Shown here piece by piece: positions 60,446-64,000 of a stretch of DNA of 64,000 nucleotides; the stretch's first letter is position 1, and each line of letters opens with the position of its first letter. The stretch lies in assembly GCF_900182705.1 (NCBI RefSeq), contig NZ_FXTP01000002.1, positions 434,001-498,000 on the forward strand, written 5' to 3'. The position numbers and the translations under genes are program-made. Source of the stretch: Gracilimonas mengyeensis. GTDB taxonomy: Bacteria; Bacteroidota; Rhodothermia; Balneolales; Balneolaceae. The notes under the pieces are model-generated. The model worked only from the letters and a program-made list of their open reading frames with translations, was not told the origin of the DNA and did no database searches.

Positions 60446-60519
60446 GGACCCGTAGCTCAGTTGGTTAGAGCAGTCGACTCATAATCGATTGGTCGCAGGT
60501 TCAAGTCCTGCCGGGTCCA
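60446..60519 (+). tRNA. tRNA with CAT anticodon (elongator Met, or Ile2 with lysidine)
   Basis: Full cloverleaf in 74 nt: acceptor GGACCCG/CGGGTCC, D arm GCTC-AGTTGGTTA-GAGC, anticodon arm GTCGA-CTCATAA-TCGAT (anticodon at 60480-60482), variable loop TGGTC, T arm GCAGG-TTCAAGT-CCTGC, discriminator A. CCA is not fully encoded. The first acceptor pair is G-C, which excludes initiator tRNA. Met and Ile2 cannot be told apart by eye. Confidence 0.93.
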
Positions 60520-60522
60520 CAG

Positions 60523-60560
60523 AAAGCCCAGTTAAGTCATTGATTTAACTGGGCTTTTTT
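60523..60560 (+). terminator. Rho-independent terminator after the tRNA
   Basis: AAAGCCCAGTTAA (60523-60535) pairs with TTAACTGGGCTTT (60545-60557) and is followed by a T run. It ends the tRNA transcript. Confidence 0.85.
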
Positions 60561-61088
60561 ATTTGTGGTACAAACATAGGTCCAAACAAAATGCAGCCCT
60601 GTTTTGTTAAAAGTTTTTTAGGGCGGGCAGGTTTTGTGCGTTAGTTAGCCGTTTAAGCGGAATATTTCTGTAAGCTCACCTTTCAATAAAAGACAAAAAC
60701 AGTGCTCTGCTGATAATAGTCGCAGGACATTTAATCATTCTTTCCCGGCCCTGACTGTTTGTGCCATTATGAGCCGATTTGCCCATTTCTGAAAGCAGTT
60801 GATTAGTGATAACAGATAAAATCTCCCTGAAGGATTGCTACCAGTAAGCACCCTTTATTTTTCTCAATCTGACAATGAATTATTCAGAACGGCCTCAAAC
60901 GAATCCTTTGAGACAGACTGGGTTGATTGAACTTAATCAGGTGAGTAAAACTAATATGATAAAATGAGGGTGACACAATCTGTCACGCATTAGGCCTACA
61001 TTTATAAACAGATTGAAGGAGTAATTCTATTATCGTGAGATATAATCAGCTTTTGAAATGCTTAAGAGTTAAATATGAATAAGTATTT
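60561..61088. other. Gene-free stretch downstream of the tRNA
   Basis: About 530 bases. Right after the terminator comes GGTACAAAC-ATA-GGTCCAAAC, a direct repeat with one mismatch, which is a possible integrase arm site, but no integrase gene is in the window. A weak AT-rich promoter region precedes the next gene. No frame of useful length is supported. Confidence 0.45.
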
Positions 61089-61961
61089 ATGCTTAGGAAG
61101 TATCTACCGATAATAGGACTAATTGCTAAAAAACATATAGTGCATCAAATGACATTAAAAGCCTATCTACACAAAAATCTTGATGAGATAAAAAACTATG
61201 AACAACATGGATTTTCCTGGGGCAAATATGAGCGGGATGAATTACTCGAGATAGAGGATTTTAGGCAATTACTCACGTCTTTAGGCCCAAATAGAAAACT
61301 TAATCGGGATGATGTTATTAGTGCATTTCGAGATCAAGATCTGTACAGAGGCTTTGTATTAACCATGATGTGGGGCGGCATTAATGCCACCAGACCTTCT
61401 GTAAAAGGAGACACTACTACTACCCATTTTTATAAGGCTCTCAGTGTGGGAAAGGTAGAAATCACCAAAATTATTGAGGGAGTACGAAAGGATATTCTTT
61501 CCAACCGCTTAGGTGAAGCGTATCACGCTATGGCAAGTAGTGAAAGACATATACCTGGAGTTGGAGAGTCCTACTTCACCAAGTTATTCTATTTCTTGGG
61601 AGAAGCTGAAAATGTTTCTCCCCTGCCTCTCATATTTGATAAATGGACAAAATTGATTCACGCTAACCTTTTAGTGGAAGAAGATGGGATTGAGGAGCTA
61701 CGAACATTTTATTCTGATTCCGTCATCAAAAAGAAATTTTTAGCCGATAAGGTTGGTCTTGCATATACAAGGTCCAACTTAAGAGAAGAAGCTTACATTG
61801 ATTATGTGAACAGAATGAATCAATTGGCCTCTGACTTAAATATACATACAGGAAAACTGGAAGGGTACTTATTTGGGTTTCCTCTTCGAGGAGAACTAAG
61901 TAAAACAGAAGCAAACCCACGAGTGTGGGTTCATAATCATTTAAAAAAATCTTTACTATGA
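61089..61961 (+). CDS. Protein with 8-oxoguanine DNA glycosylase (OGG)-like fold
   Basis: 290 residues; an alternative start at 61149 gives 270. The centre of the protein, ERHIPGVGESYFTKLFYFLG followed by LPLIFDKWTKLIHANLL, resembles the PGxGxSFxTKxLYF and LILDxWT pattern of OGG-fold proteins found in accessory and defence regions. This is a motif-level judgement. If true, it may recognise modified DNA bases. AT-rich and unlike its upstream neighbours. It overlaps the next gene by four bases (ATGA), suggesting co-translation. Confidence 0.5.
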   Translation: MLRKYLPIIGLIAKKHIVHQMTLKAYLHKNLDEIKNYEQHGFSWGKYERDELLEIEDFRQLLTSLGPNRKLNRDDVISAFRDQDLYRGFVLTMMWGGINATRPSVKGDTTTTHFYKALSVGKVEITKIIEGVRKDILSNRLGEAYHAMASSERHIPGVGESYFTKLFYFLGEAENVSPLPLIFDKWTKLIHANLLVEEDGIEELRTFYSDSVIKKKFLADKVGLAYTRSNLREEAYIDYVNRMNQLASDLNIHTGKLEGYLFGFPLRGELSKTEANPRVWVHNHLKKSLL

Positions 61962-62404
61962 TCATCCACATCGACCTTGATGGTGTCATCGCCGATTTTG
62001 ATAAAGCTCGTAACGCTCATCCGCTGAGCAAGCAAAGCCCATACAAAGGACGGCCGGATAAACTTCCGGGAATCTATAAAGATTTGGAGCCTATCCCAGG
62101 AAGTATCGAAGCAGTAAAAAAGTTATTGGATGACCAGCGCTTTGAGGTGTTTATTCTTTCCTCGGCGCCATGGGATAACCCGGATGCCTGGACACATAAA
62201 AGACTGTGGGTGGAAAAGTATTTCGGAAAGGCGATGCGGAACAAGCTCATCCTCACCAAGCGGAAAGACTTGGTTATTGGGGATTATCTGATTGATGACC
62301 TGCCGTGGAATGGGGCCAAAGAGTTTAAAGGAACCTGGATTCACTTCGGCAGCGACGCCTTCCCGGATTGGGAAGCCATATTACAAAAGCTGGAGAACCC
62401 ATGA
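61958..62404 (+). CDS. 5'(3')-deoxyribonucleotidase-like HAD phosphatase (NT5C family)
   Basis: 148 residues. MIIHIDLDGVIADF is the HAD nucleophile motif DxDGV; EVFILSSAPWDN is motif II; KRKDLVIGDYLIDDLPWNG carries the acidic motif IV (DYLIDD). It fits the 5'-nucleotidase, deoxy (pyrimidine), type C family, which dephosphorylates deoxynucleoside monophosphates, although other small substrates are possible. It is linked by ATGA overlaps on both sides to genes of unknown function. Confidence 0.8.
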   Translation: MIIHIDLDGVIADFDKARNAHPLSKQSPYKGRPDKLPGIYKDLEPIPGSIEAVKKLLDDQRFEVFILSSAPWDNPDAWTHKRLWVEKYFGKAMRNKLILTKRKDLVIGDYLIDDLPWNGAKEFKGTWIHFGSDAFPDWEAILQKLENP

Positions 62405-62835
62405 GCATTCATAAGCGCTACCTGAGGAAATTTGGATATAGTATCACCAAGAATAGGATTATAGAGCTGCTTGACGGGTATGCGTTGGACTCAAAGGAAA
62501 AAACCAAACAGGTGCGAGTGCCCCGGTCTGACTGGAGCGATTTTGAATTTGTGGTTCGCGTGGATTCGGACTTTGTGATCGCCTCTTCTTCAGAAAATGA
62601 TGACGTCGTAGACGCAGAATTAATCCGTAAAGAAGACGGCCTCAACTTTACGGTGATCAAAGAAATTACCCCGGAAACACACCCGTGGATTGCAGAAACA
62701 ATTCCTAAGGGATCAGAACTCGAGTATACCGATAAACCACACTATGGTACTATAAACAGGTATGATGGGCTGGCGTTGGATGTGGACGGAACGCCCACTC
62801 AAGTCAACTATGACTTCATCACGGTCAAGAAATAG
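62401..62835 (+). CDS. Hypothetical protein
   Basis: 144 residues from the ATG at 62401, which overlaps the preceding stop by four bases; a longer frame from 62368 is not favoured. No domain is recognised. It is acidic and hydrophilic, with no signal or membrane segment. Features include HKRYLRKFGYSITKNRIIEL at the start and LALDVDGTPTQVNYDFITVK at the end. Translational coupling to the HAD phosphatase suggests a joint function. Confidence 0.7.
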   Translation: MSIHKRYLRKFGYSITKNRIIELLDGYALDSKEKTKQVRVPRSDWSDFEFVVRVDSDFVIASSSENDDVVDAELIRKEDGLNFTVIKEITPETHPWIAETIPKGSELEYTDKPHYGTINRYDGLALDVDGTPTQVNYDFITVKK

Positions 62836-62856
62836 AAATCTAACTTCGGAGTACAA

Positions 62857-63246
62857 ATGCAACCTACCTCTTATCTGACTAAATCCAAGTTTACGCATTG
62901 TTTGGAATGTCCTGCCAAGCTGTACTACCCCGGCGGAGCAGAAATTCCTTATTCGCGGGATAATTCTATTTCACTGAACCTCACCAACGGCTTCCCTGCC
63001 GACTTTCTAAAGTTAAATATCATATGCACGTTCAATACAAAGTTAGATGATATTGACCCGGCTTTACTTCGGGAAGGTCGCCTCAAGGGGATCCATAAGT
63101 TTGAAAAGCTAAGCATCCCTCAGGCGGAAAAGCTGGCGGATCATCTGGGAAAAGAAATCAAAATTAACCAACCCATGACGCTGGCGGAAGTTTGTAATGC
63201 AGGTAATATGCAACGGAAGGTGGCGGTGAATGGGATTGGGTTTTAA
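62857..63246 (+). pseudogene. Chimeric remnant: DUF2779-like N-terminus joined to an AAA ATPase C-terminus
   Basis: 129 residues in one open frame. Residues 1-32 (YLTKSKFTHCLECPAKLYYPGG) resemble the opening of large DUF2779/RecB-like nuclease-family proteins that usually run several hundred residues. From about residue 40, LNLTNGFPADFL, LNIICTFNTKLDDIDPALLREGRL and INQPMTLAEV match the last 90 residues of an AAA+ ATPase, where DPALLREGR corresponds to the arginine-finger region. Neither part can work alone. The frame across the join is kept, which suggests an in-frame deletion between two genes. It could still be transcribed. Confidence 0.65.
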
Positions 63247-63258
63247 ACTATTAAAATT

Positions 63259-64000
63259 ATGCATGTATTTAGAATTCATATAAGACCTAAAGGTGGTAAC
63301 ACCAATATGAAAAATACATTTGACTATTGTCTTAGGGAAAACTTATTAGGGGTAGGTTGGAGAGTCCCTGGTTTACAATCAACAAAAAACTGGAATGATT
63401 ACTACAAAGAGGCTATAAAAACTCATGGTAAAGTAAACGTATGTAAATACATAAATAAATGGGTTGAAGAATATGATTTAGTTTGGACTAGAGATCAGAA
63501 TGGGAAGTACTACTTAGCAAAAGTAGAATCGGGCTGGGAATATTTAAATACTAAAGAAGCAAAAGATAAGGATATTGATATTGCTAATGTTTTTCGGTGT
63601 GAGAACATTTTACCAGTAGAGATAGATGAAGTCCCAGGCAAGGTTATTGCAAGTTTTCGTGCAAAAAGGTCCATTCAAAAAGTAACAGGCTTCCAGACTC
63701 TTGAATATTCTAAGTTTCTTTGGAATAAATTGTCTGGCAAAGATACTTATGACATTAACAGTACAAAGATAAAGGATGTTTTTTCAATGTTAGACGATGA
63801 AGAAACTGAAGACTTGATCTTTCTATATCTCCAAACTAAGGATTGGTTTATAGTTCCAAACTCTCGCAAAGGTGATACTATGAAATATGAATTTTACTTA
63901 ATTAGTAAGATTGATCACAGTAAAGCTTTGGTACAGGTAAAAACGGGAAACTCAATCTTAAACAGAGAAGAATATTTAGATCTAGACAACCAACATTTGG
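63259..64000 (+). CDS. Unknown protein, runs off the right edge
   Basis: The frame is open from the ATG at 63259 to the window end (at least 247 residues), so the gene is incomplete. No family is recognised. AT-rich codon use, with AGA and ATA codons, differs from the core genes. Near the end LISKIDHSKALVQVKTGNS resembles the final strand and helix of PD-(D/E)XK nucleases (a Q-V-K-T-G core), but one motif is insufficient. Comes 12 bases after the chimeric remnant in the same orientation. Confidence 0.7.
   Translation, partial: MHVFRIHIRPKGGNTNMKNTFDYCLRENLLGVGWRVPGLQSTKNWNDYYKEAIKTHGKVNVCKYINKWVEEYDLVWTRDQNGKYYLAKVESGWEYLNTKEAKDKDIDIANVFRCENILPVEIDEVPGKVIASFRAKRSIQKVTGFQTLEYSKFLWNKLSGKDTYDINSTKIKDVFSMLDDEETEDLIFLYLQTKDWFIVPNSRKGDTMKYEFYLISKIDHSKALVQVKTGNSILNREEYLDLDNQHL

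What the first reader, a model, noticed from the sequence alone, without database searches (positions are those of the whole stretch)
60446..64000. tRNA-adjacent accessory segment with DNA-damage or nucleotide-linked genes
Seen: directly after the tRNA come an OGG-fold-like gene, a deoxynucleotidase and an unknown gene, each overlapping the next by ATGA, then a chimeric remnant and an AT-rich unknown gene. Base composition and gene content differ from the core. Inference: the right end of the window enters a genomic island integrated near the tRNA, and the OGG-HAD-unknown trio is a possible functional unit handling modified bases or nucleotides, perhaps in defence.
Basis: partly seen in the sequence, partly recalled or inferred. 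Interest (0 to 1): 0.6.

Follow-up and report, generated by a model that had tools for sequence, protein, structure and literature searches.

The report
Mosaic phage-defence island after tRNA gene
Just after a tRNA gene this bacterium carries a patchwork of virus-defence genes; the three overlapping genes that looked like one unit have different origins, and one of them belongs to a little-studied family of possible DNA-repair-like enzymes that keeps turning up beside other virus-defence genes.

Summary
The AT-rich gene is PADLOC candidate PDC-S02. Past the window the stretch continues as a defence island of about 14 kb: Type I HsdM/HsdS/HsdR, PDC-M66A/B, a phosphatase and a Fic protein.

The trio is not a unit. 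None of 12 other OGG loci has an NT5C HAD, and none of 28 HAD loci has an OGG gene, within the stretches fetched. Third-position GC splits them (OGG z -5.3, HAD +2.5). What recurs is HAD with gene 3 and with DUF2779, a predicted exonuclease. The chimera is the DUF2779 N-terminus fused to the C-terminus of an AAA ATPase that adjoins a HAD and a Type I system in a same-genus relative.

Tyrosine integrases sit right after this tRNA in two relatives, but here there is neither integrase nor repeated tRNA end.

Most interesting: OGG-like genes lie near known or candidate defence genes in 8 of 12 loci and keep an invariant Lys-Asp pair: candidate anti-phage DNA glycosylases, untested.

The parts
60446..60520 (+). 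tRNA-Met (CAT), a variable-site boundary; follows the conserved pair of universal-stress-protein genes
   Evidence: ARAGORN; site compared in relatives
60523..60557 (.). inverted repeat with T-run right after the tRNA, terminator-like
   Evidence: self-match on the opposite strand (91%); sequence
61089..61961 (+). OGG-like protein, PF21790 (290 aa; start perhaps 61149); invariant Lys165 and Asp184; AT-rich
   Evidence: Pfam; alignment A7; composition
61958..62404 (+). HAD-fold 5'(3')-deoxyribonucleotidase-like protein (NT5C, PF06941), 148 aa; overlaps OGG by ATGA
   Evidence: alignment A1; PDB relatives
62401..62835 (+). gene 3, 144 aa, unknown family; C-terminal half weakly SH3-like; homologues next to HAD in 3 other loci and 5 kb away in a fourth
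62857..63246 (+). chimeric remnant: first ~35-40 codons = N-terminus of a DUF2779 protein, rest (homologous DNA 62973-63246) = C-terminus of an AAA ATPase; lacks the rest of both
63259..64000 (+). PDC-S02 phage-defence candidate (gene continues to 64161 outside the window), GC 0.316
   Evidence: PADLOC (E 1e-84 over 296 of 299 profile positions); composition

Best explanation
The right end of the window enters a defence island of about 14 kb (60.5-74.6 kb in window coordinates extended past the end) next to a tRNA-Met that is an integration hot spot in the genus. The island is a patchwork of modules with different histories around a Type I restriction-modification system. (a) The OGG-like gene is a separate module: a member of a sporadic family that sits beside unrelated defence systems. 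Most likely it is a DNA glycosylase (Lys/Asp chemistry) that removes a modified or damaged base from incoming phage DNA, leaving abasic sites; this last step is inferred. (b) HAD and gene 3 are a second module that elsewhere lies with a DUF2779 protein (PD-(D/E)XK plus DEDD exonuclease domains, as described in PMC3985635). Most likely HAD strips phosphate from deoxynucleoside monophosphates, perhaps those released by that nuclease, so that a phage cannot recycle them; inferred. Here the nuclease gene has been destroyed: only its start survives, fused by a deletion to the end of an AAA ATPase, so the pathway is probably incomplete. (c) PDC-S02 and HsdMSR form a third module. The ATGA overlap of OGG with HAD is therefore a junction between modules, perhaps co-transcribed, and not evidence of a conserved trio.
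For: Island contents. Sporadic site in relatives and hot-spot integrases. Trio not recurring: 0 of 12 OGG loci with an NT5C HAD or gene 3, 0 of 28 HAD loci with OGG. HAD with DUF2779: 8 of the 14 HAD loci that have long flanks, from overlapping by 8 bases (L117) to 3.4 kb away (L128); HAD with gene 3: 4 of 28 loci, in L065 with the same start-stop overlap. HAD is 80-81% identical to a copy in another genus (G042) that lies 200 kb from its tRNA-Met, whereas the core USP neighbour is 59%. Composition split. Chimera parts: (AAA 78 of 96 residues identical; DUF2779 19 of 41). Same AAA-HAD-HsdM-HsdS-S02-HsdR neighbourhood in G061. OGG beside defence genes in 8 of 12 other loci. Lys165/Asp184 invariant in 11 of 11, 19 apart in the window protein, like K249/D268 of human OGG1 (numbers from passages of PMC9638937 and PMC13160076).
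Against: No enzymatic activity is shown for any of these proteins. Sequence profiles of OGG-like proteins do not match solved glycosylases or the genus's own Nth/MutY (hhalign probability 0.2 or less), so the OGG fold rests on Pfam's label and the Lys/Asp pair. 4 of 12 OGG loci showed no defence enzyme (L122, L171, L175, and L177 which has only a WYL regulator). The neighbours scanned against PADLOC were partly hand-picked, and 2 of 10 control proteins also gave PADLOC matches at E <= 1e-3 through shared domains. Island ends are inferred from synteny breaks, not from repeats.
Confidence: 0.62

Rival explanations
1. The OGG-HAD-gene 3 trio is a genuine three-gene system handling modified bases or nucleotides: OGG excises a base, HAD cleans up the nucleotide pool, gene 3 senses or regulates. 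The translational overlaps reflect coupled expression.
For: Two 4-base overlaps in one direction; all three families lie in defence-like neighbourhoods.
Against: 0 of 12 OGG loci have HAD or gene 3 and 0 of 28 HAD loci have OGG; GC3 differs by about 8 core standard deviations between OGG and HAD.
Confidence: 0.08
2. The OGG-like protein is an ordinary DNA-repair enzyme carried along by chance, and the HAD is household nucleotide metabolism; the defence setting is hitch-hiking.
For: 4 of 12 OGG loci lack defence enzymes in the stretches examined; HAD relatives in genus g6 sit in conserved, non-defence surroundings; HAD homologues are common in large phages (84 of 50,697 phage records).
Against: OGG is rare (3 of 394 phylum genomes over cut-off; 2 of 244 in the class; 8 of 300 in the order of G002), unlike a housekeeping repair gene, and it lies inside or overlapping defence operons (between HsdS and TmtA in L123; overlapping PDC-S26 by 17 bases in L173 and L174).
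Confidence: 0.22
3. The segment is a classical tRNA-targeted integrative element whose integrase and distal attachment repeat lie elsewhere or have been lost.
For: 88%-identical tyrosine recombinases follow the same tRNA in G089 and G394; contents after this tRNA differ between relatives.
Against: No recombinase match on the contig and no tRNA 3'-end copy in 46.7 kb. On the right the island abuts a core FAD dehydrogenase gene that lies elsewhere in the genus (for example G394 at 182 kb, with the tRNA site at 2168 kb), which suggests rearrangement rather than clean insertion. No repeat was found in G394 or G089 either, in the stretches held.
Confidence: 0.3

Closest known systems
Brig1 and Brig3, anti-phage DNA glycosylases (PMC11078745, passages read; PMC13160076, abstract and passages read)
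   Same: A small glycosylase-like gene standing in varied defence islands, expected to remove a modified base from phage DNA
   Different: Brig1 models as a uracil-DNA glycosylase fold and Brig3 is its homologue; the window protein matches only PF21790 (OGG-like) in Pfam. No activity shown here
8-oxoguanine DNA glycosylases hOGG1 and AGOG (PMC9638937, passages read)
   Same: Pfam label PF21790 'OGG-like'; an invariant Lys and Asp, 19 apart in the window protein, as K249/D268 of hOGG1
   Different: No detectable sequence-profile similarity to solved glycosylases or to Nth/MutY; shorter, sporadic, defence-island setting
NT5C 5'(3')-deoxyribonucleotidases, cellular and phage-borne
   Same: PF06941 over cut-off; PDB relatives are deoxyribonucleotidases; Vibrio phage homologues at 45-47%
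   Different: Lies in a defence island with gene 3 and a DUF2779 remnant
DUF2779 (PF11074) PD-(D/E)XK/DEDD putative exonucleases (PMC3985635, passages read)
   Same: Intact copies next to the same HAD subfamily in other genomes
   Different: Only an N-terminal fragment is left in the window
Type I restriction-modification islands with embedded accessory genes
   Same: HsdM, HsdS and HsdR with PDC-S02, PDC-M66A/B and Fic between or beside them
   Different: OGG, HAD and gene 3 are not in PADLOC-DB 2.0.0

Membership tests
Anti-phage defence island | Several known or candidate defence genes clustered | tested here: met
   PDC-S02, Type I HsdM/S, PDC-M66A/B and SoFic by PADLOC, HsdR by Pfam
tRNA-integrated genomic island | Site variable between close relatives | tested here: met
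   No shared ORF after the tRNA/USP in 8 relatives
tRNA-integrated genomic island | Integrase next to the tRNA | tested here: not met
   8 PF00589 matches in the genome, none on contig C2
tRNA-integrated genomic island | Direct repeat of the tRNA 3' end at the far end | tested here: not met
   None in 46.7 kb to the contig end
OGG-like (PF21790) | Match above Pfam's gathering score | tested here: met
   85.5 bits against 27
HhH-GPD glycosylases (OGG/AGOG) | Catalytic Lys/Asp pair | tested here: met
   K165 and D184 invariant in 11 of 11; spacing 15-19
HhH-GPD glycosylases (OGG/AGOG) | Profile similarity to HhH-GPD enzymes | tested here: not met
   hhalign against Nth/MutY alignments, probability 0.2 or less (only Nth- and MutY-type proteins were available); PDB hmmsearch negative
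HhH-GPD glycosylases (OGG/AGOG) | Glycosylase fold | tested here: inconclusive
   Single-sequence AlphaFold2 model with mean pLDDT 35, unusable
Brig DNA glycosylases | Uracil-DNA-glycosylase-type fold | tested here: not met
   Only PF21790 matches at E <= 1 in Pfam; fold not modelled
NT5C deoxyribonucleotidase | Family match and HAD acidic residues | tested here: met
   PF06941 63.1 bits against 24.8; D6, D8, K103, D109, D113 and D114 among the invariant columns (their roles recalled)
OGG-HAD-gene 3 system | The three genes recur together | tested here: not met
   0 of 12 OGG loci and 0 of 28 HAD loci

The most novel reading that the evidence does not exclude
PF21790 OGG-like proteins are a second, structurally unrelated class of anti-phage DNA glycosylases beside the uracil-DNA-glycosylase-type Brig proteins. 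They use an OGG1-like Lys/Asp pair to excise modified bases from phage genomes and are plugged as single-gene modules into Type I, BREX, Druantia-like, TmtA and abortive-infection islands. In this island the glycosylase has just been fused, through an ATGA overlap, to a HAD/gene 3 module whose partner nuclease was lost.
Probability: 0.33. Interest if true: 0.68.

Novelty: new variant of a known kind. Interest (0 to 1): 0.42.

Why it matters
If OGG-like proteins are defence glycosylases, base excision as an anti-phage strategy arose more than once, and PF21790 becomes a short list of testable candidates with a predicted catalytic lysine. The HAD/gene 3/DUF2779 association, seen here partly decayed, suggests a nuclease plus deoxynucleotidase module. 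More generally the locus shows how a tidy-looking operon with ATGA overlaps can be a recent junction of unrelated modules.

Tried and rejected
Trio as a unit: rejected. Integrase and repeated tRNA end for this island: sought, not found. The 568-base gap after the tRNA: no coding remnant found with the relatives' proteins. OGG in phages and in viral contigs: none. OGG in plasmids: one Vibrio record only; the G002 OGG found none. OGG structure: unusable model, not searched further. Gene 3: three-sequence model, mean pLDDT 59.6; Foldseek best E 0.34, mostly SH3 domains, so only a hint. OGG against solved structures and against Nth/MutY profiles: negative. PHROGs gave nothing for OGG or gene 3. 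Papers: PF21790 found none; OGG-like with phage-defence words had no listed paper with 'OGG-like'; deoxyribonucleotidase with phage-defence words had no listed paper with 'deoxyribonucleotidase'. So I found no paper naming this family in defence, in this library and with these searches only. Dropped rows: G154 (L124) and G795, below PF21790's cut-off, are not among the 12 OGG loci; L177 (broken, with a stop) is counted as a locus but left out of the residue alignment; L197 was found after the alignment and is not in it. The HAD loci used are 28 of those fetched: 14 with long flanks and 14 with only 1.5 kb flanks, for which absence of a neighbour means little; L068 (same place as L128), L078 and L080/L082/L083 are represented by other or longer stretches of the same places where held. 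In one search the binomial figure rests on an assumed two DUF2779 genes per 3 Mb, and the Fisher figure on a placeholder control; neither is used as evidence.
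Full report
What is there. The window is G000:C2:434001-498000 of an unnamed 4.67 Mb draft genome. tRNA-Met(CAT) lies at 60446-60520, followed by a terminator-like inverted repeat and 568 non-coding bases in all. Then come five ORFs on the + strand: OGG-like 61089-61961 (PF21790), HAD 61958-62404 (NT5C, PF06941), gene 3 at 62401-62835, an ORF at 62857-63246 and an AT-rich gene from 63259. OGG/HAD and HAD/gene 3 overlap by 4 bases each.

What follows the window. I read the contig to its end. Next come the rest of PDC-S02 (to 64161 in window numbering; PADLOC E 1e-84), HsdM, HsdS, a HipA_2 kinase-like protein (PDC-M66A), a DUF3037-like protein (PDC-M66B), a dual-specificity phosphatase, a Fic protein (SoFic) and HsdR, ending near 74.55 kb. 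After a 513-base gap comes an FAD/NAD dehydrogenase that is a core gene: 17 of 19 relatives searched have a match, but in the same genus it lies elsewhere, for example at 182 kb on G394's contig C1 while the tRNA site is at 2168 kb. So the segment is a defence island of about 14 kb between a conserved left side and a break of gene order on the right.

The site in relatives. The two universal-stress-protein genes before the tRNA are conserved (66-71% for the nearer one in the 9 same-genus genomes). The tRNA-Met is found with them in 5 of those 9 (in three it is turned round) and in G042 and G092 of other genera. What follows differs each time: none of the ORFs of 80 aa or more in the 107 kb of own sequence matches any ORF after the tRNA (or after the USP gene where no tRNA is near) in 8 relatives. 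In G089 and G394 a tyrosine recombinase (88% identical to each other) starts about 225 bases after the tRNA. That makes the tRNA an integration hot spot. But this genome's contig has no tyrosine recombinase, and no piece of the tRNA of 12 bases or more recurs in the 46.7 kb to the contig end. Integration at the tRNA is plausible history, not shown.

Is the trio real? I tested recurrence from both sides. OGG: by single protein 1 of 394 phylum genomes (itself); by family, 3 of 394 over cut-off, 8 of 300 in the order of G002, 2 of 244 in the class, one plasmid, no phage, no viral contig. I examined 12 other OGG loci, among them one broken copy; two matches below cut-off were left out. None has an NT5C HAD or gene 3. 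HAD: 28 other loci, 14 with long flanks; none has OGG. Base composition agrees: OGG GC3 0.320 (z -5.3 against 40 window ORFs), HAD 0.557 (+2.5), gene 3 0.524 (+1.4), chimera 0.492 (+0.4), PDC-S02 0.282 (-6.5). The ATGA overlap between OGG and HAD is a junction of two modules.

What HAD and gene 3 belong to. The nearest HAD (80-81%) is in G042, another genus, where it overlaps a gene 3 homologue (23% overall) in the same manner and lies 0.8 kb after a DUF2779 gene, far from that genome's tRNA-Met. DUF2779 is found within the fetched stretch in 8 of 14 long-flank HAD loci: overlapping HAD by 8 bases in L117, divergent and adjacent in L114 and L115, nearby in L065, L113, L120, L125 and L128. PMC3985635 (passages read) places DUF2779 among presumed 3'-5' exonucleases with a PD-(D/E)XK-like DUF83 domain. 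Gene 3 homologues adjoin HAD in L065, L116 and L120 and lie 5 kb away in L118. L116 and L120 share their surroundings, so they are not independent. In G423 a more distant HAD (41%) is followed by DUF2779; in G061 and G159 distant HADs (about 42% and 40%) lie just before restriction-modification genes.

The chimera. Residues 6-45 of the 129-aa ORF match the N-terminus of the G042 DUF2779 protein (19 of 41 identical; the conserved YLTKS motif start), and residues 36-129 match the C-terminus of a 355-aa AAA ATPase of G061 (78 of 96 identical; DNA 79% over 274 bases, window 62973-63246). In G061 that ATPase directly precedes a HAD, then HsdM, HsdS, a PDC-S02 relative (34%) and HsdR. So the island once held a DUF2779 gene and an AAA gene; a deletion joined their ends and the exonuclease part is gone.

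OGG family and defence. Neighbours of the 12 other OGG loci: L123, inside a Type I operon between HsdS and TmtA, with HsdR after it; L178, between TmtA and a DruF/DruL-like gene; L173 and L174 (91% alike neighbours), overlapping a PDC-S26 nuclease by 17 bases; L172, next to AbiEii and a MazG-like gene; L176, next to AbiH and PDC-S26; L087, 83 bases after an AbaSI/PvuRts1I-like modification-dependent nuclease on a Vibrio plasmid; L197, 5.7 kb before BrxA-BrxB-BrxC. L177 (broken OGG) has a WYL regulator only; L122, L171 and L175 have none that I could see. That is 8 of 12. Caveats: neighbours were partly chosen by eye before scanning, and 2 of 10 control proteins near core genes also gave PADLOC matches at E <= 1e-3, apparently by shared domains. 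Across 11 aligned family members that are 19-33% identical to the window protein, the invariant residues include K165, D184, W95, G96 and E258; the Lys-Asp spacing is 19 in the window protein (15-19 in all). Human OGG1's pair is K249/D268 (passages of PMC9638937 and PMC13160076), the same spacing. Against this, no profile similarity to solved glycosylases or Nth/MutY was found, and the single-sequence model is useless.

Mechanism. Shown: gene order, families, conservation, chimera, mosaic composition. Inferred: OGG excises a modified or damaged base from phage DNA and leaves abasic sites, as Brig1 and Brig3 do with a different fold (PMC11078745 and PMC13160076, passages read); HAD hydrolyses deoxynucleotides, perhaps the products of the lost DUF2779 nuclease; gene 3 is an accessory with a possible SH3-like part (weak). 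I give the mosaic-island account 0.62 and the defence-glycosylase reading of OGG 0.33.

Novelty. A defence island with a Type I system is a known kind. The OGG-like module is not in PADLOC-DB 2.0.0, and no paper in the held library names PF21790 or, in the listings, OGG-like proteins in defence. That search does not prove absence.

Noticed in passing
Past the window, L009-L011 joined numbering 23184-45386 (about 79-101 kb in extended window numbering): A run of genes that read like a contractile injection system (sheath-, tube-, baseplate- and spike-like proteins by eye; no family search done) follows the island after the core FAD dehydrogenase.
   Followed up: no
62401-62835 and L065:8557-8970: Adjacent overlapping genes diverge very unequally between G000 and G042: HAD 80% but gene 3 only 23% identical. 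Gene 3 is either evolving fast or has been swapped under a conserved HAD.
   Followed up: partly
L054, L056, L057, L058, L059, L061 around tRNA-Met: The tRNA-Met at this site lies in opposite orientation in three relatives and has different 3' halves (for example L056 and L057 against L054 and L059), with a mismatched acceptor stem in L057, as expected if elements replaced its 3' end.
   Followed up: partly
L061:7004-8634: In G042 a HipB/HipA-like pair (by eye) lies about 3 kb after the same tRNA-Met; another accessory content at this site.
   Followed up: no
L126:7458-16303: G061 carries AAA ATPase, HAD, two unknowns, HsdM, HsdS, an unknown, PDC-S02-like and HsdR in one run on another contig, a likely relative of this island's ancestor at a different site.
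   Followed up: partly
L177:9258-10499: An OGG-like gene broken by a stop, with a WYL regulator beside it: the family decays in some genomes.
   Followed up: no
viral contigs; phage records: NT5C-type HADs at 44-48% identity are common in large phages, so the HAD module may itself have come from a phage.
   Followed up: no
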